Shown here piece after piece: positions 1 to 7,874 of a stretch of DNA of 7,874 bases (its first letter is position 1; each line of letters starts with the position of its first letter). Under the pieces are notes generated by a model that worked only from the letters and a program-made list of their open reading frames with translations, did no database searches and was not told the origin of the DNA. The stretch is from Oscillospiraceae bacterium (lineage in GTDB: Bacteria; Bacillota_A; Clostridia; Oscillospirales; Ruminococcaceae): the NCBI GenBank assembly GCA_900766795.1, contig CAAFWX010000160.1, positions 1 through 7,874 on the forward strand, in the 5' to 3' direction. A program made the translations under genes and the position numbers.

Positions 1-154
1 CAACGGCGCAGCTGAGCGGCTTTTCATTGCCGGCGGCCGTTGGGCTAATTCCGTGGGGGCTGGTGTGTTCGGGGTCTACTGCGATAGTCCTCGCTCGGGC
101 TCGGGCGGCTACCTTGGTTTCCGCTCCGCTTTTGTTAATCTGCCGACTGTGTAA
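1..154 (+). CDS. C-terminal end of DGR target (variable C-type-lectin-like) protein, partial
   Basis: The frame is open from base 2 to a TAA at 152-154, giving the last 50 residues; the start lies outside the window. The peptide has the hallmarks of a DGR variable region: LFIAGGRW near the start, AGVFGVY in the middle, an SGSGGYLGFRSA stretch, and a short tail ending NLPTV. The W-x-N-S and GFRSA parts are the conserved frame of the C-type-lectin (CLec) fold used by DGR target proteins such as Mtd of Bordetella phage BPP-1; the residues between them form the ligand-binding face. Eleven residues differ from the peptide the TR would encode, and ten of these come from TR codons containing adenine. 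Beside phage lysis genes, a tail or receptor-binding protein is the likely identity, but the N-terminal part is unseen, so this is inference. The family role (binding a variable ligand) is established knowledge. Confidence 0.9.
   Translation, partial: NGAAERLFIAGGRWANSVGAGVFGVYCDSPRSGSGGYLGFRSAFVNLPTV
17..132 (+). repeat. DGR variable repeat (VR)
   Basis: This 116-base segment aligns without gaps to 676-791 (offset 659). It differs at 13 of the 20 positions where the template has A (10 to G, 2 to T, 1 to C) and at 9 of the 96 other positions. The last stretch (119-132) is identical in both copies and would hold the initiation-of-mutagenic-homology sequence. The VR lies in frame in the end of the target gene, 20 bases before its stop codon. 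The 5' edge is approximate because identity ends gradually. Confidence 0.95.
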
Positions 155-166
155 CTGTGTTCTGAA

Positions 167-186
167 GACTTCGCGACAGCGAAGTC
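167..186. other. Post-VR hairpin/cruciform with GACA tetraloop
   Basis: GACTTCGC (167-174) and GCGAAGTC (179-186) form a perfect 8-bp stem around a GACA loop. It lies 12 bases after the target stop codon and about 35 after the VR. In the BPP-1 DGR a hairpin or cruciform of this size, just 3' of the VR and with a GRNA-type loop, is needed for efficient target recognition; GACA fits that pattern. No similar stem follows the TR, as expected if it marks recipient rather than donor. The assignment by position and shape is inference. Confidence 0.75.
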
Positions 187-194
187 CACTATCT

Positions 195-224
195 CCCGCC
201 GAAGGCGGGTCGCGCGATTTTTTT
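195..224 (+). terminator. Probable terminator of the target gene
   Basis: CCCGCC (195-200) and GGCGGG (204-209) form a 6-bp GC stem with a GAA loop. Eight bases later comes a run of seven T (218-224). The gap before the T run is longer than in a classic intrinsic terminator, so it may work less well or fold differently: 209-214 can also pair with 172-177 in the preceding hairpin. Confidence 0.6.
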
Positions 225-231
225 GGGATAA

Positions 232-260
232 CGCATTTCGTTATTTTGTAACAAAATGCG
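232..260. other. AT-rich 12-bp inverted repeat upstream of avd
   Basis: 232-243 pairs with 249-260 at 11 of 12 positions (one C/A mismatch) around a 5-base loop. It lies between the target-gene terminator and the avd promoter, ending about 20 bases before the -10 box. It could be an operator, a second terminator-like stem or a structure linked to the DGR. No function can be assigned from sequence. Confidence 0.4.
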
Positions 261-277
261 AAATTATCGAAAAAATA

Positions 278-286
278 TGCTATAAT
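278..286 (+). promoter_or_regulatory. Extended -10 promoter for avd-TR-RT
   Basis: TGCTATAAT is a perfect TATAAT (281-286) with the TGn extension. No good -35 box lies 16-18 bases upstream (258-263 reads GCGAAA), which an extended -10 can tolerate. It is 28 bases before the avd start and would give a short leader. Since no terminator is visible between avd and the RT gene, one transcript may carry avd, the TR RNA and the RT message. Confidence 0.6.
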
Positions 287-300
287 AGGCGTATGCGGTG

Positions 301-308
301 AGGAGGGG
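301..308 (+). promoter_or_regulatory. Ribosome binding site fixing the GTG start of avd
   Basis: AGGAGGGG lies 5 bases before GTG at 314. An overlapping out-of-frame ATG at 312 would produce only MWRN, so the site supports GTG as the true start. Confidence 0.7.
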
Positions 309-313
309 TAGAT

Positions 314-661
314 GTGGAGGAACTGAAAATCGAACAAAAAATCTTTGATATGATGAAGTACGGTTATTCAGCCCTCGCGCAATTCCCTAAATCAGAAAAA
401 TTCGCCCTTGCGACCGACATCAAGAAATGTATGGACGTGATGCTTGAACGCTGCATTGAGGCAAAGAAAAAGTATTACAAAAAATCCACACTGCAAGAGC
501 TTGATGTGGAGAACGAAAAACTAAAGGCTTATCTGCGGCTTTCCCACGAGCTTGGATTTCTGCCAACTAAGAAATACAGCGTATGGAGCGAAAAGTCTTT
601 AGAAATTGGTAAGATGTTAGGGGGCTGGCTTAAATCCGTCAGTGCCGGTCCCAAAGCATAA
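314..661 (+). CDS. avd: DGR accessory variability determinant (Avd), four-helix-bundle protein
   Basis: This 115-residue basic helical protein matches the Avd family: FPKSEKFALATDIK near residues 24-37, an A-KKKYYKK basic helix near 50-57, LDVENEKLKAYLRL in the third helix, then an ELGFLPTKKY turn and the C-terminal LGGWLK motif. Avd forms a pentameric barrel that binds the reverse transcriptase and TR RNA and is required for cDNA synthesis and mutagenic homing in BPP-1. The length is normal for the family (about 110-130). The start is GTG at 314, five bases after AGGAGGGG (301-308). An ATG two bases earlier (312) is in another frame and ends after four codons. Its stop codon is 14 bases before the TR, the usual DGR order. 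Confidence 0.93.
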   Translation: MEELKIEQKIFDMMKYGYSALAQFPKSEKFALATDIKKCMDVMLERCIEAKKKYYKKSTLQELDVENEKLKAYLRLSHELGFLPTKKYSVWSEKSLEIGKMLGGWLKSVSAGPKA

Positions 662-675
662 GGAGCAAATCGTTA

Positions 676-791
676 CGGCTTTTCATTGCTGGCGGCAATT
701 GGACTAATTCCGTGAGGGCTGGTGTGTTCGAGGTCAACGCCAACAACCCCCGGTCGAATTCGAACGGCAACCTTGGCTTCCGCTCCGCTTT
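676..791 (+). repeat. DGR template repeat (TR)
   Basis: This is the invariant donor copy of the VR. Read in VR phase it would encode a peptide with RLFIAGGNW at the start and SNSNGNLGFRSA near the end; eight codons are AAC or AAT. Adenines in the first two positions of AAY codons let mutation reach many residues without making stop codons, a known design feature of DGR templates. It lies between avd and the RT gene on the same strand, so its RNA can be made with them. The 3' end, identical to VR, would carry the IMH* sequence where cDNA synthesis meets the target. Confidence 0.95.
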
Positions 792-943
792 ACCCAAAAT
801 CGTCAGATACGGTGGACTCAAGGGTTCTCCGTCAGTACAATGGGAATAAAGGGATTTGCCCCTTCTGTCAGCAATGGCAGAAAAAAGCAGACTGGCTGTA
901 TATTCCGCTTCGGCTGAAAAGTGCAGCAAGAGAGGAGTTGTGT
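792..943 (+). other. TR-RT spacer, probable structured part of the TR RNA
   Basis: No gene is supported here. Two small hairpins lie directly back to back: 849-853 with 860-864, and 865-869 with 876-880 (one G-U pair), each a 5-bp stem with a 6-base loop, followed by A6 (881-886). In BPP-1 the RNA just downstream of the TR binds RT-Avd and primes cDNA synthesis, so this segment is the natural candidate for that role. The functional assignment is by position only. Confidence 0.45.
931..937 (+). promoter_or_regulatory. Ribosome binding site fixing the RT start at 944
   Basis: AGAGGAG lies 6 bases before ATG at 944. The frame is open further back to an ATG at 722, but that start is inside the TR and has no ribosome site, so it would add 74 unrelated residues. 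Confidence 0.8.
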
Positions 944-2056
944 ATGGACAAGCACGAACACGTTTTCGAGAGATTTGTTGATTTCGAGAACCTGTATGGC
1001 GGATACCTGCTTGCGCGAAAGAACAAGCGCTACAAGGACGAAGTGCTGTCATACACGGCGAATCTTGAGGAGAACTTGATAACCGCACAGAATCAGCTGA
1101 TATGGAAAACATATCGGGTGGATAAAATGCACGAGTTTATTGAGTATTATCCCAAAAAGCGTATCATAACAGTAATGCCGTTCGCGAATCGCGTTGTAAA
1201 CTGCGCGGCTTATAATGTTCTATTCCCGATATACCGGAAATCATTCTATGAACACTCCTATGGCTCAATTCCCGGGAGAGGTCCGTTGAAAGCTGCCCAG
1301 CAATTACAATATTGGCTTAAGCTCGTCGGAAACAAGCCCGAAAAATGGTATCTCTGCAAAATGGACATTGCAAAGTTCTTCTTTCGCGTCCCTTTTGATG
1401 TACAGATGGAGTGCCTCGGAAGGCAGATTAACGACGCACAGATGATGTGGTTCTTAGAGCAGGCAATAAAATGCGATGGTAGAGCTTTCGGGCTTCCCGT
1501 TGATGCAACAGATGTCACCGAATGCGAACGGATTTCCGGCATAGGAATGCAGGTCGGCAGCTTAATTTCTCAGATGACAGCAAATGTTGTAATGACACCG
1601 GCAGACCACTACATCAAGCGAGAGTTAAGAGCACCGTATTACATCCGCTATATGGATGATATGATATTCCTTGCACCGAGCAAAGAACAGGCGCAGGATA
1701 TTCTCGGATTGTTCAGCGAGTTCCTGAACAAGAATTTCGGACTTGAACTGAACAGCAAAACATCAATAATGCCGTACAATGAAGGGGTTGAGTTTGTAGG
1801 GAAACGAGTGTTCCCGGACAGAATCCAACTTCGGAAATCAACCTCTTTACAAATGAAACGGCACTTGAAATACATAATGGACCACTACAGCACCGGAGAA
1901 ATCCCACTCGATTACGCCTTGGCAACAATACGGGCTTATCTTGGGTTGATGAAGCATTGCGACTGCGATGCGCTGCGCCGAAAGGTTCTCCAAGATTGGG
2001 TCTTGGTGCGACATTACGCTAATTCACAGGAAGATAATGATAGCCTCGATTATTAA
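944..2056 (+). CDS. DGR-type reverse transcriptase
   Basis: This 370-residue RT makes the adenine-mutagenised cDNA from TR RNA together with Avd. Visible RT blocks, numbered from ATG 944: block 1 near KKRIITVMPFANRVV (71-85); block 2 SYGSIPGRG (105-113); block 3 with the first catalytic aspartate, KMDIAKFFF (D141); block 4 GMQVGSLISQMTANV (201-215); block 5 YMDD (236-239); blocks 6-7 LNSKTS through FVGKRV. The G-xxx-SQ form of block 4, rather than the SP of group II introns, is typical of DGR RTs. There is no intron maturase or endonuclease domain. Length is normal for DGR RTs. The catalytic residues are intact, so it should be active. The context (VR, Avd, TR) makes the subtype assignment firm. 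Confidence 0.94.
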   Translation: MDKHEHVFERFVDFENLYGGYLLARKNKRYKDEVLSYTANLEENLITAQNQLIWKTYRVDKMHEFIEYYPKKRIITVMPFANRVVNCAAYNVLFPIYRKSFYEHSYGSIPGRGPLKAAQQLQYWLKLVGNKPEKWYLCKMDIAKFFFRVPFDVQMECLGRQINDAQMMWFLEQAIKCDGRAFGLPVDATDVTECERISGIGMQVGSLISQMTANVVMTPADHYIKRELRAPYYIRYMDDMIFLAPSKEQAQDILGLFSEFLNKNFGLELNSKTSIMPYNEGVEFVGKRVFPDRIQLRKSTSLQMKRHLKYIMDHYSTGEIPLDYALATIRAYLGLMKHCDCDALRRKVLQDWVLVRHYANSQEDNDSLDY

Positions 2057-2120: not shown

Positions 2121-2480
2121 ATGGATAGTGCAATAATTTGTGCGCTCATCAGCGCTGCTGTCACAATCGGGAATGTGGTTTTTACTACGGTAATGAGTCA
2201 CATATCAGAAAAGAAGCGCCGTGAGGATGTCGAGACAATGCGGCAGAACGACCGCACCAAACAGCTTGAGAGCGGCTTGCAGTCGCTTTTAAGAGCGGAG
2301 ATAATCCGCTCCCATGAGAAATACATGGACAGAGGCTATTGCCCTGTTTATGCGAGAGAAGCGCTTACGCGTGCGTATGAATCGTATCATGCGCTCGGCG
2401 GAAACGGTACCATCACAGGGCTATATAATCAGATTATGGCTCTGCGGACAGACGATAAGGAGGACGAACATGAAAATTGA
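2121..2480 (+). CDS. Phage protein of lysis region, N-terminal membrane anchor
   Basis: This encodes 119 residues, starting at ATG 2121, 7 bases after AGGGGG. Residues 4-24 (AIICALISAAVTIGNVVFTTV) are a membrane segment; a highly charged helix follows (residues 30-55, rich in K, R, E, Q). A conserved-looking core follows with RGYCPVYAREAL and YHALGGNGTITGLYNQI. Proteins of this architecture commonly sit directly upstream of the holin in Firmicutes prophages, and this one overlaps the holin gene by 11 bases, implying translational coupling. A role in lysis timing or holin function is likely from context, but no biochemical activity is known to me. Confidence 0.75.
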   Translation: MDSAIICALISAAVTIGNVVFTTVMSHISEKKRREDVETMRQNDRTKQLESGLQSLLRAEIIRSHEKYMDRGYCPVYAREALTRAYESYHALGGNGTITGLYNQIMALRTDDKEDEHEN

Positions 2481-2691
2481 TTGGAAACGCAAACTGACAT
2501 CACGCAAGTGGTGGGTATCTGTGGCAGCGCTGGTGTCTGGTTTGATTCTTGCGTTCGGCGGCAACGATGAGATTGCGACCACCGTCAGCGGTTGTATCAT
2601 GGCGACTGCAGCAGTGGTAGGTTACACCATAGGCGAGGGACTGGCCGACGCGGCGAACAGCGGCAAGGACGGTGATGACGATGTCATGTAA
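2470..2691 (+). CDS. Holin-like phage protein
   Basis: This encodes 73 residues from ATG 2470, 6 bases after AAGGAGG (2457-2463). The N-terminus IDWKRKLTSRKWWVS resembles the INWK-x-R-KN-FW opening of phi-LC3/SPP1-type phage holins. Two hydrophobic stretches follow (about 14-28 and 33-53), then a short charged tail, DGDDDVM. Holins collect in the cytoplasmic membrane and form lesions that release or activate the endolysin. Overlaps with the gene before (11 bases) and the amidase after (17 bases) make a tight lysis operon. An earlier in-frame start at 2314 would be buried inside the upstream gene and is not supported. Confidence 0.82.
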   Translation: MKIDWKRKLTSRKWWVSVAALVSGLILAFGGNDEIATTVSGCIMATAAVVGYTIGEGLADAANSGKDGDDDVM

Positions 2692-3531: not shown

Positions 3532-3572
3532 TGCCGCCCTCGGTGAGAAATCTCCGAGGGCGGCATTTTTTT
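3532..3572 (+). terminator. Strong intrinsic terminator after the amidase
   Basis: TGCCGCCCTCGG (3532-3543) pairs perfectly with 3554-3565 (12 bp, GC-rich), followed by seven T (3566-3572). The T run overlaps the stop codon of the converging minus-strand regulator, so the stem may stop transcription from both sides, though the minus-strand U run is poor. Confidence 0.93.
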
Positions 3573-3897
3573 ACTTGATTTCTTCAGAAGTGAGCTTTCC
3601 GGTCTTTTTGTACCTCAAGCCTTCGGGTGAAGAAAAAACTTCCTCTCCGAAAACATACTCGCCGTGATAAAACTTTGTAATATCCATTTCTAAAGCCTCG
3701 ATAATCCTACAGGCAATCTGAAACGAACAAGTCATAATGCTGCGCTCTCCGCTCTCAAACTTCTGGTACTGCTGAAGAACAATACCGGCTTTATCCGCAA
3801 CCTGATTCTGCGTAAGACCTAAAACAAGTCTTTTTTCCCTCAATATAGTGTGACCATCATCGGACAGGTGGCACATCTGAAAACCGCTAAGATCCAT
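3571..3897 (-). CDS. XRE/Cro-CI family transcriptional regulator (lysogeny region)
   Basis: This encodes 108 residues. A helix-turn-helix of the XRE family spans about residues 19-75: LREKRLVLGLTQNQVADKAG, then VLQQYQKFESGER, then IACRIIEALEMDITKFY. A 30-residue tail follows with no recognisable peptidase or oligomerisation domain. The start is ATG at 3897, 9 bases after AAAGGAG; the in-frame ATG at 3921 is rejected because that ribosome site would then lie inside the gene. Its promoter carries paired palindromes, so self-regulation is likely. In a phage setting it would act as a repressor or Cro-like switch; which of the two cannot be told. Confidence 0.85.
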   Translation of the reverse strand: MDLSGFQMCHLSDDGHTILREKRLVLGLTQNQVADKAGIVLQQYQKFESGERSIMTCSFQIACRIIEALEMDITKFYHGEYVFGEEVFSSPEGLRYKKTGKLTSEEIK

Positions 3898-3918
3898 ATA
3901 ACATTTCTCCTTTCTATG

Positions 3919-3932
3919 CACTCACTTGAATG
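3919..3932. promoter_or_regulatory. Operator-like palindrome O2
   Basis: CACTCA-CT-TGAATG is a near copy (one arm mismatch) of the perfect palindrome at 3947-3960, with centres 28 bases apart. It lies between the -10 box and the ribosome site of the minus-strand regulator, where bound repressor would block transcription. Confidence 0.6.
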
Positions 3933-4042: not shown

Positions 4043-4300
4043 TTACACCTTCTGCTTATAAACGCTATGGCTTTCGCATCTGTCAACCGTTCTCTGTGTA
4101 TTGGGGGTATACACAACGATTTCCGACAAATCGCAATTCAGCGCCTCGCAGATTTTATCAAGGTGTTCGAGGTTCACTCGCTCTGCAACATTGTGGAATA
4201 GGTCGTTTATGGTGTTTGGCCGTATCCCTGTCTTTTCAGCGAGTTCTGCTTGCGTTACCCGAAGCTCGCCCAGCTTGCGCGATAACATTATTGTAATCAT
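4043..4300 (-). CDS. Small XRE/Cro-like DNA-binding regulator
   Basis: This encodes 85 residues and is almost entirely one helix-turn-helix domain (about residues 5-65): LSRKLGELRVTQAELAEKTG, then IRPNTINDLFHN, then LEHLDKICEALNCDLSEIV. This arrangement is close to the short Cro-like XRE proteins of the YozG/HTH_26 type. The ATG at 4300 lies 10 bases after AAGAGGAG (4318-4311). A TTG at 4306 would be 4 bases from it and is an alternative start adding two residues. It lies between the recombinase and the other regulator, on the same strand, with its own promoter and terminator. It probably controls the lysogenic state or the recombinase; the target is unknown. Confidence 0.85.
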   Translation of the reverse strand: MITIMLSRKLGELRVTQAELAEKTGIRPNTINDLFHNVAERVNLEHLDKICEALNCDLSEIVVYTPNTQRTVDRCESHSVYKQKV

Positions 4301-4323
4301 CTGCAATACACTCCTCTTGATAA

Positions 4324-4531: not shown

Positions 4532-6103
4532 TCATTTCGGAACTTCCTGCGGTAAAAGCGGCATAACGTCCAGCGTGAAGCTGCATTTGTAGGGCTCGCC
4601 GCGCGTGTTGCGCTCTGACTTTATGTAGTCAGCTCTGCTGATGATGGTTTTCAGCAAGCGGTTCTTTTCGGTTGGTGAGGACTCGGCGTAGATTTCCATA
4701 ACGCTATTTACCCGCGGGATTATATCGGCGTAAAGGCGGCAGTTTTCTTTTGCCTGCGCTTTTTCCCGCTCACATTGCTCAAGCCGCTTAGCAAGCTTTC
4801 CGCGCTGCTTTTCCTGCGCCGAAATGCGCTCGCTGAAAACCTCGGGAGTGTAGACGCCCTGTTCCAAAAGCCGGTAAATCCTCTCCCGCTGAGTATCCAG
4901 AGCCGAAAGCTCCTGCTTCAGCTTCCGTATGCTGTCTTTTTGGGCGGAGGGAAATTCGGGCGCAGATGGTTTTACTTCAATGCAAACGCCGTCAAGCCAA
5001 AGCGACAAAGCCTCAATCAGTGCACTCTCAACCTGTTTCAGCTTTGCCGAAACGTTTCGGCAGCTTTTGTTCGGGCAGCGTAATATTTCGCTGCGATTTC
5101 TTGCGCCTGTCCCAAGCCTTGTCATCATCCTGCCGCATAAGCCGCAGAAAATCAGTCCCGAAAGAGGATTTTTAAGCTCGGTGCTGTTCTTGTTCCGTGC
5201 TGCTTTCCTAGTGCAGATAACTGTCTGCGCCTTTGCAAATTCCTCCTCGCTTATAAGCGCCGCGTGAAGCCCCTGCGCCAGAATACAGTCGGGATTCTGG
5301 CGCCTGCGCACGATTACGGTGCCGTCGATAAGGTTTTTTTCTTCCCTGCGGAACTGCCAGCGAATCTTTCCGCAGTAAACGGGATTTCTAAGGATATCTG
5401 ATACCGCAGAGCCGCTCCACGCTTTGCCGCTTCGCGTGGGGATTCCCATGCTGTCAAGCCGCCGTGCAATGGCGCTTCTGCCAAGCCCGCCAATGCACAG
5501 CGAAAAAATCAGCTTTACCGTACCGCTTTCTTCGTTTGGCTTCAGGGTGTAACCTCTGCCGCCTTCGACCTTCACCTTGTCATAACCATATGGCGGAGTG
5601 CTGCCGATGAAATGACCCTCCTTTGCCGAAGCAATGCGCCCGCGCATTATTCTTCGGGAGATAGCCTTGTATTCACGCCTTGCCATGAACAGCTCAAAAT
5701 CGACGTATTCCTCGTCGCAGTCCTGCGTGGTGTCGTATATCCGCGCGGGAGTGATGATAAGCGTTTTGGCAATGCTGAAAGTGCGGGTTATCCTTGCCTG
5801 GTCTGCGCTGTCGCCTCTTGCAAGGCGGTCTATATCCATGCAGAGTACCCCTGCCCATCGTCCTTCCTCAACGTCCGAAAGCAGCCGCAGCATTTGCGGG
5901 CGCGAGTCAATGCTGTCGCCCGAAACTATCTCCTTGTAAACTGCGCCGATTTCGAGCCGATTGCGCTCGGCGTATTCCATAAGAGCCTTTGTGTGCCGCG
6001 AAAGGGTTTCGCCCTGACCCATGGCTTCTGCGTCCTTGTCCGCCCGCGACTTTCGCAGGTAAATTGCGTATTGTATAGCGCTTTCGCCCCCTTTCCGAAA
6101 CAC
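4532..6103 (-). CDS. Large serine recombinase (site-specific integrase)
   Basis: This encodes 523 residues and catalyses integration and excision through a serine-DNA link. The resolvase-type catalytic domain is near 10-150: the nucleophile is probably S19 in IYLRKSRADK, with the SRP (67-69) and DIDRLARGD (90-98) motifs. The Recombinase domain follows near 160-300, including PPYGYDKV and ILRNPVYCGKIRW. A zinc ribbon has C320, C323, C343 and C348. A coiled coil lies near 385-465, as in large serine integrases. Size and layout are normal and no break is seen. The GTG start at 6103 has no ribosome site before it. AAAGGGGG lies inside the frame (6094-6087), 10 bases before an ATA codon at 6076. 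Relatives I recall begin at that point, so ATA may be the real start, or a lost ATG. Confidence 0.93.
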   Translation of the reverse strand: MFRKGGESAIQYAIYLRKSRADKDAEAMGQGETLSRHTKALMEYAERNRLEIGAVYKEIVSGDSIDSRPQMLRLLSDVEEGRWAGVLCMDIDRLARGDSADQARITRTFSIAKTLIITPARIYDTTQDCDEEYVDFELFMARREYKAISRRIMRGRIASAKEGHFIGSTPPYGYDKVKVEGGRGYTLKPNEESGTVKLIFSLCIGGLGRSAIARRLDSMGIPTRSGKAWSGSAVSDILRNPVYCGKIRWQFRREEKNLIDGTVIVRRRQNPDCILAQGLHAALISEEEFAKAQTVICTRKAARNKNSTELKNPLSGLIFCGLCGRMMTRLGTGARNRSEILRCPNKSCRNVSAKLKQVESALIEALSLWLDGVCIEVKPSAPEFPSAQKDSIRKLKQELSALDTQRERIYRLLEQGVYTPEVFSERISAQEKQRGKLAKRLEQCEREKAQAKENCRLYADIIPRVNSVMEIYAESSPTEKNRLLKTIISRADYIKSERNTRGEPYKCSFTLDVMPLLPQEVPK

Positions 6104-6118
6104 TGCTGAAGAATATGT

Positions 6119-6313
6119 TCAGGCATTCTCGGGGGAGTTCGGCTGCTTCTCACGAATACGCTGAAGGTCGTTTTTCAGCGCAATCTGCTGCGCAGTTTTT
6201 GTCAGATTTTCGTGGCGCAGCGCAAGCTCAGATTCGCCCGCTCCGATGTAGCTCAAATCATGAAACTTCACCTGTGCGCCGCAGCTTGCGGAATAAGCCA
6301 TAATCAAACTCAT
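6119..6313 (-). CDS. Small hypothetical protein upstream of the recombinase
   Basis: This encodes 64 residues from ATG 6313, preceded by GAGGTGAGG; the GTG at 6322 would place that site inside the gene. The N-terminal third contains MAYSASCGAQVKFHDLSYIG; the rest is a charged helix (about 31-58, ELALRHENLTKTAQQIALKN). It is not membrane bound and has no HTH that I recognise. It ends 15 bases before the recombinase start and should be co-transcribed with it. A partner of the recombinase, for example a directionality factor, is possible from position only. It could also be an unrelated small element gene. Confidence 0.6.
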   Translation of the reverse strand: MSLIMAYSASCGAQVKFHDLSYIGAGESELALRHENLTKTAQQIALKNDLQRIREKQPNSPENA

Positions 6314-6572
6314 ATTCCTCACCTCATGAAAAGTATATGGCGGCAGGTTTGTACGTTTTCTTCATGTTTATATACCGGCATTTGAGATTTCGTAATTTGA
6401 TAATTCTTGAGGCAGGGGATACGCTTTGCTTCTGCAAAAATAGAATATGACACATGTTCCAAGTAGTTTTGACCTGATAGAACGAGCATAGAAAACCTAT
6501 CAAATTGCTTCTAAAATATGCACAAATTATGATGAATTATTTGTAGAAATGCTCAAAAAATTACACATGATG
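6314..6572. other. AT-rich region without genes, probable element-host junction
   Basis: No open frame worth calling is found on either strand. The promoter of the recombinase operon should be here: TATACT on the minus strand at 6337-6332 is a candidate -10, but the -35 is weak. Because the recombinase lies to the left and a chromosomal-looking chemoreceptor with an intact promoter to the right, an attachment site is most likely in this stretch. It cannot be pinned down without the other end of the element. Confidence 0.4.
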
Positions 6573-6601
6573 TTGACCTGCCAATTATTTAGTGATATAA
6601 T
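6573..6601 (+). promoter_or_regulatory. Sigma-A type promoter of the chemoreceptor gene
   Basis: TTGACC (6573-6578) and a perfect TATAAT (6596-6601) have a 17-base spacer. The leader to the start codon is about 67 bases. No sigma-28 type motility promoter was noticed. Confidence 0.85.
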
Positions 6602-6674
6602 GAGTTAAACAGGTGGCTTGTGTTGGTTATTATCGACAAAACCTGCGTATTCATAATAATAAAGGAGAAAAGAT

Positions 6675-7874
6675 ATGTCGTTTCTGTCAAAACTGCCTAT
6701 CAAAAAACACATTATTGTAGTAATACTAATACTGGTGCTGCTTCCGCTGTTGATTTGCGGTAACGTTGCCATGGTGCTGAATTACAGCACCTCAATAAAC
6801 TCAACGCAAACAGATATGCAAGCAATGGTGAATCTGTGCGCCGAGCGGATTTGCTGGGAACTGCAAACATTCTCTGCTATTGCGAGAGAAGCCGGCTGCA
6901 ATACGGCACTTTGCGACCCTGATGTGTCTAACGACGAAAAGGAGGCAATCCTTGATGTCAGAGTGAGGGAGAACAACTTCCAGCGCGGCGACATAATCGG
7001 TGCTGATGGAAAATGTATCTTCGATGGTGAGAGCTTCAATGATGAACCCTGCTATATTGAGGCTATGAAAGGAAATATGTACATTTCCGAGCCGATGGTG
7101 GACCCCGAAACAGGAAAGCTTACCTCGTATGTTTCAGCTCCTCTGTGGGAGAACGGCGTTGAGGATTCCACGCCCATCGGCTGTGTGTACTTTGTCCCCG
7201 ATGAGGAGTTCCTCAACGATATAATGCGCGAAATCAACTTCAGCGACACCAGCGCCGCTTACATAGTTGACAAGAACGGCAACACAATCGCTGACGTGAG
7301 CACCGAGCTTGTAAAGAACGGCGAGAATATTGAGGCGCTTGCTCTTGAGAACAGCGGCTATGCTGAGCTTGCCGAAACTCATGCTAAGATGAGAAACGGC
7401 GAAACCGGCTTCTATGATTACTACGAGAACGGCACGAGAATGTTCATGAGCTATGCGCCCATTCCCGGCACCGACGGCTGGTCGCTTGGAATATATGCAA
7501 ATGCAAATGACTTCCTTGGCGATACAATGCTCACAATCATCATTACGGTTATTCTTATCGCAGTTGCGGCGGCAATCTCGGTTGTCAGCGCAAACATAAT
7601 CGGAAATCACATCGGCAATCCCATCAAGCAGTGCGCCGACCGACTTGTTAAACTCGCGCACGGCGACCTTACAAGCCCTGTTCCCGAGGTAAAGTCCAAG
7701 GACGAAACAGGTTTGCTTGCAGATACAACACAGACTCTTGTCAATGACTTCAACCGAATCATCAGCGACATGGACAATATCCTTGTCAATATCTCGAACG
7801 GAAACTTCGATGTCAGAAGCGAGAACGCCGAGGAGATATACGCAGGCGACTTCAGCAGTCTGCATGATTCCGTG
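6675..7874 (+). CDS. Methyl-accepting chemotaxis protein, N-terminal part (Cache sensor, HAMP), truncated by window end
   Basis: The frame is open for 400 codons to the window edge. ATG 6675 lies 7 bases after AAAGGAG (6661-6667). Transmembrane helix 1 spans about residues 12-35 and the extracellular sensor about 38-280. The sensor is double-Cache-like, with EPMVDPETGKLTSYVSAPLW near 139-158 and a second lobe from AAYIVDKNGNTIA to YAPIPGTDGWSLGIYAN. Helix 2 is about 284-306. A HAMP domain begins at NHIGNPIKQC and includes LAHGDLTSPVPEV; a second HAMP-like unit seems to begin at ILVNISNGNFDV. The signalling domain would lie beyond the window. Such receptors sense small extracellular ligands and control CheA. 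The ligand is unknown. It is probably host, not phage. Confidence 0.9.
   Translation, partial: MSFLSKLPIKKHIIVVILILVLLPLLICGNVAMVLNYSTSINSTQTDMQAMVNLCAERICWELQTFSAIAREAGCNTALCDPDVSNDEKEAILDVRVRENNFQRGDIIGADGKCIFDGESFNDEPCYIEAMKGNMYISEPMVDPETGKLTSYVSAPLWENGVEDSTPIGCVYFVPDEEFLNDIMREINFSDTSAAYIVDKNGNTIADVSTELVKNGENIEALALENSGYAELAETHAKMRNGETGFYDYYENGTRMFMSYAPIPGTDGWSLGIYANANDFLGDTMLTIIITVILIAVAAAISVVSANIIGNHIGNPIKQCADRLVKLAHGDLTSPVPEVKSKDETGLLADTTQTLVNDFNRIISDMDNILVNISNGNFDVRSENAEEIYAGDFSSLHDSV

What the first reader, a model, noticed from the sequence alone, without database searches (positions are those of the whole stretch)
1..2056. Diversity-generating retroelement with target end, Avd, TR and RT
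Four parts in canonical order are visible: a variable repeat at the 3' end of a lectin-like gene, avd, an adenine-rich template repeat, and an RT with the SQ form of block 4. Ungapped VR/TR comparison gives 13 of 20 A positions changed against 9 of 96 others. This is direct evidence of adenine-specific mutagenesis, and the RT catalytic residues are intact, so the system may still be active.
Basis: partly seen in the sequence, partly recalled or inferred. Interest (0 to 1): 0.95.

Follow-up and report, generated by a model that had tools for sequence, protein, structure and literature searches.

The report
Phage mutator with a mismatched template
This is a phage cassette of a known kind, predicted to rewrite the end of one phage protein from a nearby template copy, but the rewritten stretch does not fit the template beside it and so was likely last written from a different one.

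Summary
The count is exact: 13 of 20 A sites and 9 of 96 other sites differ (p=3.8e-7). Neighbours (lysis genes, repressors, integrase) are prophage-like. As a DGR it is ordinary; the 9 is not. Among 55 TR/VR pairs (window included), 52 have 0-3 non-A mismatches. Over the last 55 nt of the VR the resident TR is the best fit in 36 of 39 loci; in the window 13 other phages' TRs fit better. Relatives L001/L002 carry one and the same VR beside two different TRs. So the VR's 3' half was probably written from another template, and nothing shows that the resident TR has fired into it. Separate drift of a dormant element is the main rival; a free-breakpoint test of the mosaic is only marginal (p=0.054). 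RT and Avd look intact. 'DGR' is supported; 'may still be active' is weakened. The TR is not adenine-rich (20 of 116).

The parts
2..154 (+). 3' end of the target gene (last 50 codons and TAA; start lies outside the window)
   Evidence: frame and stop; translated 2-151 matches the last 46 positions of PHROG 2889, 39 bits
17..132 (+). variable repeat (VR)
   Evidence: 13 of 20 A-opposed and 9 of 96 other sites differ from TR
119..132 (+). 14 nt at the VR 3' end identical in TR (778-791), presumed homing-initiation end
   Evidence: alignment; role inferred from BPP-1
167..186 (+). 8-bp inverted repeat with GACA loop, 34 nt after the VR: target-recognition hairpin/cruciform
   Evidence: hairpin found in 52 of 55 loci, shuffles 0.5%; role from PMC3240598 passages
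195..224 (+). second hairpin (195-209) and T run (218-224), probable terminator of the target gene
   Evidence: sequence and DNA fold; function inferred
314..661 (+). avd (115 aa, GTG start)
676..791 (+). template repeat (TR), 20 A of 116
792..943 (+). spacer between TR and RT, presumed part of the template RNA
   Evidence: position; closest to L083 (70%); function inferred from BPP-1
944..2056 (+). DGR reverse transcriptase (370 aa)
2121..2480 (+). small conserved phage protein of unknown function (neighbour)
   Evidence: PHROG 4105, 4257
2470..2691 (+). holin-like protein (neighbour)
   Evidence: PHROG 297 holin, 28 bits
2672..3514 (+). amidase endolysin with SPOR repeats (neighbour)
3571..3921 (-). 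HTH repressor-like protein (neighbour)
4043..4306 (-). HTH repressor-like protein (neighbour)
4532..6103 (-). large serine recombinase, phage-integrase-like (neighbour)
   Evidence: Pfam Recombinase/Resolvase, PHROG 95 integrase 351 bits

Best explanation
This is a DGR with RT, Avd, template, variable repeat and target hairpin in place, whose variable repeat was likely last written from a template other than the one now beside it. In the working cycle (inferred from BPP-1, not tested here) RT and Avd copy the TR RNA into cDNA, misread its adenines, and the cDNA replaces the VR next to the hairpin, changing the end of a predicted phage tail or receptor-binding protein. Here the resident TR agrees with the VR in the 5' half (1 of 53 non-A mismatches) but not in the 3' half (8 of 43). 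The simplest account is that recombination between related phages brought together a TR (or its 3' part) and a VR of different descent after the VR was last rewritten. Shown: the parts, the mismatch, its rarity among relatives, the L001/L002 precedent. Inferred: recombination as the cause in the window, and that the resident TR has not fired since.
For: Non-A mismatches: 0-3 in 52 of 55 pairs, 9 in the window, 12 in L002, 5 in L070. Own TR is the best fit to the last 55 nt of the VR in 36 of 39 loci; the exceptions are the window (13 foreign TRs better), L002 (2 better, L001's TR with 0 mismatches) and L070 (5 better). In the 5' half the window's own TR is the best of 55 (1 mismatch, next 7). 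Non-A mismatches cluster (7 of 9 within 21 nt, p=0.0016; other widths p=0.004-0.014) and 7 of 9 lie at third codon positions (p=0.018). Precedent: L001 and L002 differ at 1 of 890 target sites and 0 of 125 VR sites but at 20 of 125 TR and 289 of 1294 RT-side sites (profile). RT and Avd show no decay.
Against: No perfect parent template was found: the best foreign TRs still have 5 mismatches over 55 nt and three pattern scans of viral contigs found nothing. With a free breakpoint the mosaic is marginal (p=0.054). Foreign TRs resemble one another most in the 3' half, which eases a better fit there. At the nine sites relatives side partly with the TR and partly with the VR, as drift of both copies would also give. 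L082 is the closest to the window's TR and VR alike, so the two alleles are kin. L002 could be an assembly chimera.
Confidence: 0.6

Rival explanations
1. Dormant DGR: this same TR wrote the VR long ago, homing stopped, and both copies have since drifted apart by ordinary point mutation.
For: Both copies seem to carry derived bases: by inspection of the alignment of 15 loci, VR 31 and 100 look derived in the TR, VR 85 in the VR. Third-position bias also fits a VR drifting under selection on its protein. Free-breakpoint clustering is only marginal.
Against: RT and Avd show no sign of decay: 1 deviation at 84 invariant RT columns, 0 at 8 Avd columns, pN 0.10 and pS 0.77 against L097. 13 foreign TRs fit the VR's 3' end better than the resident one. 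Seven of nine mismatches crowd into 21 nt.
Confidence: 0.32
2. Active DGR with a less faithful RT that also errs at non-adenine template bases.
For: Non-A-to-N changes are reported in 46.3% of 1,874 TR-VR pairs, about 1.5 per pair on average, and called underestimated (PMC6642488, passages).
Against: RTs in the same supported group have pairs with 0-2 non-A mismatches except L002. Third-position bias and clustering are not expected of RT errors.
Confidence: 0.04
3. Assembly artefact: target end and TR-RT from two co-occurring phages were joined.
For: The window's source is unknown and no genome is held.
Against: Part order and spacing are as in relatives; the 5' half of the TR fits the VR better than any of the other 54 TRs.
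Confidence: 0.04

Closest known systems
Bordetella phage BPP-1 DGR (RT matched as 8ub7; that 8ub7 is the BPP-1 enzyme is recalled)
   Same: Order target/VR, avd, TR, RT; GSLxSQ and YMDD motifs; hairpin of 8-bp stem and GRNA loop after the VR
   Different: Target is not shown to be Mtd-like; hairpin lies 34 nt after the VR (BPP-1 is at the short end of the 4-34 bp range); 9 non-A mismatches
DGRs of Clostridia phages and prophages (L001-L048, L070, L081-L097)
   Same: RT 54-83% identical; the same layout in the 55 loci with a VR-TR pair; hairpin in 52 of 55
   Different: 52 of the 55 pairs (window counted) have 0-3 non-A mismatches, the window 9
DGR of viral contig L002 (IMGVR_UViG_3300018494_002562)
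   Same: VR does not fit the resident TR (12 non-A mismatches); 9 of 12 at third codon positions
   Different: Its parental template is known (L001's TR, 0 mismatches over 55 nt) and the exchanged stretch can be seen
Bacillus phage BalMu-1 RT (best named phage in INPHARED)
   Same: RT 41.6% identical over 96%
   Different: Distant; its TR/VR was not examined

Membership tests
Diversity-generating retroelement | RT of the DGR clade with the (I/V/L)GxxxSQ block | tested here: met
   VGSLISQ and YMDD; best solved match 8ub7 ahead of group II intron RTs; nests among RTs with their own TR/VR pairs. No tree with non-DGR RTs was built.
Diversity-generating retroelement | TR/VR repeat with substitutions concentrated at TR adenines | tested here: met
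   13 of 20 against 9 of 96, p=3.8e-7
Diversity-generating retroelement | VR at the 3' end of a protein-coding target | tested here: met
   VR ends 19 nt before the stop at 152-154; the gene's start lies outside the window
Diversity-generating retroelement | accessory protein Avd (common, not universal; recalled) | tested here: met
   bAvd and PHROG 3206
Diversity-generating retroelement | hairpin/cruciform with 4-nt loop after the VR (phage DGRs) | tested here: met
   167-186, GACA loop, fits GRNA
Diversity-generating retroelement | mutagenic retrohoming | not testable with these tools
   Seen indirectly in relatives (L015/L016: 10 of 26 A-opposed VR sites differ, flanks 0), not in the window
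DGR whose VR matches its resident template (the usual state, not a defining feature) | at least 75% of mismatches at TR adenines, and own TR the best fit to the VR | tested here: not met
   13 of 22 = 59%; 13 foreign TRs fit the last 55 nt better. PMC8144416 section 7: overwhelmingly >=75%, 7 seemingly genuine clusters below.
C-type lectin fold target | lectin-fold variable domain | tested here: inconclusive
   The window holds 50 codons only; 3 of 3 full-length relatives match FGE-sulfatase below Pfam's cut-off; L082's target matches 5vf4 outside the VR; no fold was predicted

The most novel reading that the evidence does not exclude
DGRs change templates: phages exchange the TR by recombination, and a VR can outlive its template and keep its imprint, so that clusters of non-A mismatches are a fossil record of lost templates rather than RT errors. 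The window, L002 and L070 are three such cases among 55 pairs, and in L070 the template itself appears to have been mutagenised at its own adenines.
Probability: 0.5. Interest if true: 0.55.

Novelty: new member of a known kind. Interest (0 to 1): 0.38.

Why it matters
The element itself adds one more phage DGR. The mismatch matters because non-A changes in TR/VR pairs have been read as a property of the mutagenesis or as possible sequencing and assembly error, and pairs with four or more are filtered out in one survey (PMC6642488, passages). If templates are replaced between phages, such pairs would instead record template turnover, and would show how DGRs come to serve new receptor-binding genes. 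The test (does the own template fit best?) can be run on any DGR catalogue.

Tried and rejected
Further VRs in the window's own genome: no genome is held, so this check could not be made. A near-identical phage was not found: the exact TR pattern gave 0 hits in viral contigs, three degenerate VR/TR patterns 0 hits. The closest RT in the protein search is 92% identical (P0001) but comes without context; 1268 proteins matched and 120 are listed. In 297 genomes drawn from the family of L097's genome, 59 had an RT match; the best was that genome itself (82%), the next 42%. A further match in G003 (L167) looked like a second VR of L082's phage; it sits beside another TR-like copy and is probably a separate element. 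Rfam: no match at gathering score. Avd: no relative of solved structure at E 0.01. Loose RT fidelity was rejected as the main cause. The idea that the window's template had been mutagenised like L070's was not borne out: the window is not among the deviants at the six conserved AAY codon columns. No structure was predicted.

Selection and rows left out: one search took 69 of 161 sequences then held (window, L001-L048, L059, L065, L070, L081-L097); 14 of 69 gave no pair above the threshold. The 55 include duplicates or near-duplicates (L010/L011, L017/L018, L031/L093). The two or three mismatches in L001, L009 and L045 come from longer ends; one search has 0 for them. One search used 39 of 55 (anchor found, at least 50 nt); one search used 34 distinct TR ends. 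Codon positions for the window were in a wrong frame and were redone. Of the 52 hairpins, 5 begin 63-70 nt after the VR and may be another hairpin; 46 of 52 loops fit GRNA.

Full report
Observation. The window begins inside a gene whose last 50 codons (2-154) hold a 116-nt repeat, VR 17-132, with a second copy at 676-791, TR. Of 20 TR adenines 13 differ in the VR; of 96 other bases 9 differ (Fisher p=3.8e-7). Between the repeats lies avd (314-661), after TR the RT (944-2056). The best solved relative of the RT is 8ub7, ahead of group II intron RTs; the alignment runs through GSLxSQ and YMDD. That 8ub7 is the BPP-1 enzyme is recalled.

An extra part. 34 nt after the VR stands a perfect 8-bp inverted repeat with a GACA loop (167-186). 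Hairpins with a 4-nt loop and a stem of at least 7 bp lie within 90 nt after the VR in 52 of 55 loci, against 0.5% of shuffled stretches; 46 of the 52 loops fit GRNA, and 5 of the 52 begin 63-70 nt away and may be another hairpin. A hairpin or cruciform with a 7-10 bp stem and a GRNA loop, 4-34 bp after the VR, is described for phage DGRs and is needed for BPP-1 homing (PMC3240598, passages). A second hairpin with a T run (195-224) looks like a terminator.

Setting. Downstream follow a small phage protein of unknown function, a holin-like protein, an amidase with SPOR repeats, two repressor-like proteins and a serine integrase on the other strand, then a Cache/HAMP gene that is probably host DNA. 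The loci with the closest RTs are viral contigs and mostly Clostridia MAGs; titles name sheep, goat, deer and rabbit samples among others. This suggests a prophage of a gut Clostridia bacterium (inference). Full-length targets of relatives match PHROG 2889 (unknown function) and weakly a tail-protein family (2 of 2), and FGE-sulfatase below Pfam's cut-off (3 of 3); L082's target matches one solved chain, 5vf4, outside the VR. 'Lectin-like' is plausible, not shown.

The subfamily diversifies. In L015/L016 the target upstream (0 of 900), the avd region (0 of 559), TR (0 of 117) and the RT side (0 of 1300) are identical, while 10 of 26 VR sites opposite TR adenines differ and 1 of 91 others. With more diverged flanks, L039/L040 show 18 of 25 and 1 of 92, L095/L096 11 of 21 and 1 of 99, L042/L043 14 of 24 and 2 of 89. 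L010/L011 and L017/L018 show no VR difference.

The window is an outlier. In 55 pairs found among 69 sequences, non-A mismatches number 0 in 35, 1 in 10, 2 in 5 and 3 in 2; then L070 has 5, the window 9, L002 12. With 59% of mismatches on A the window is below the 75% that DGRs overwhelmingly reach; 7 seemingly genuine clusters below it were reported (PMC8144416, sections 7 and 10 read, the rest in passages). A survey that allowed fewer than four non-A changes found some in 46.3% of 1,874 pairs, about 1.5 per pair (PMC6642488, passages), so one to three are common; nine are not. Since programmed non-A changes of the template were incorporated at 100% in a reconstituted DGR (PMC12875486, passages), the resident TR has probably not rewritten VR 80-118 since the two diverged.

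Why another template. I scored TRs against VRs over the last 55 nt by non-A mismatches. The own TR is the best in 36 of 39 loci; the exceptions are the window (8 mismatches, 13 foreign TRs better, best 5), L002 (5; 2 better, L001's TR with 0) and L070 (5; 5 better, L090's with 3). In the 5' half the window's own TR is the best of 55, with 1 mismatch against 7 for L082. The halves differ, 1 of 53 against 8 of 43 (p=0.0098, breakpoint chosen after seeing the data); with a free breakpoint the permutation p is 0.054. Clustering within 21 nt has p=0.0016, other widths 0.004-0.014. Seven of nine differences lie at third codon positions, p=0.018; in L002 9 of 12, p=0.017.

Precedent. L001 and L002 are nearly identical from the target through the VR and most of the avd region, then fall to 50-98% per 40-nt block across TR and RT and return to 90-100% near the end of the shared stretch. 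In numbers: target 1 of 890, VR 0 of 125, TR 20 of 125, RT side 289 of 1294 sites differ. L002 thus carries a VR that L001's template explains, beside another TR; an assembly chimera is not excluded. In L004 against L005 and L007 the TR falls to 55-85% per block while the blocks just before and after are 95-100%, and the target is diverged too. So templates and targets seem to change more freely than avd and RT. The window is mixed: its VR and TR are closest to L082 (77%; TR 5' half 83%, 3' half 89%, the last shared with L029 and L033), its spacer and RT to L083 (70%, 68-80%). In the RT tree the window pairs with L097 (SH-aLRT 91) near L083 and L082 (90), inside a group of 10 (99).

Is it alive? 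RT and Avd look functional: one deviation at 84 invariant RT columns, none at 8 in Avd; pN 0.10 and pS 0.77 against L097. The 14 nt shared at the 3' ends of VR and TR and the hairpin are present. Nothing found prevents activity, and nothing shows that the present template has been used. Dormancy with drift stays possible (0.32).

Literature. Recombination of target genes and transfer of a DGR cassette are known (PMC3521204, passages). I saw no account of template replacement that leaves a mismatched VR in the listings of six searches or the passages read; subscription papers and supplements were not searched.

Verdict. A genuine and largely ordinary phage DGR; the mismatch between its VR and its template is the part worth following.

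Noticed in passing
L070:7702-7817: Its TR seems to have lost adenines: against sister L090's TR it has TTC, CAC and GGC in place of three AAC codons, and all 5 of its non-A TR/VR mismatches fall where L090's TR has A. The template itself may have been mutagenised (self-homing or copying from VR to TR).
   Followed up: partly
L004:7709-7821 against L005 and L007: The TR is an island of low identity (55-85% per 40-nt block) between flanks of 95-100%, and the target is diverged too: TR and target exchanged, avd and RT kept.
   Followed up: partly
L015/L016, L007-L008 kb: Two viral contigs identical over 900 nt of target, 559 nt of avd region, TR and 1300 nt of RT side differ at 10 of 26 A-opposed VR sites: a natural snapshot of DGR action.
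   Followed up: yes
L167:953-1593: A second element in the genome that holds L082, with its own TR-like and VR-like copies on another contig.
   Followed up: partly
window 722-943: The RT reading frame is open upstream through the spacer into the TR (ORF 722-2056); probably without meaning.
   Followed up: no
window 6119-6675: The right prophage end should lie between the integrase and the Cache/HAMP gene at 6675; no attachment site was sought.
   Followed up: no
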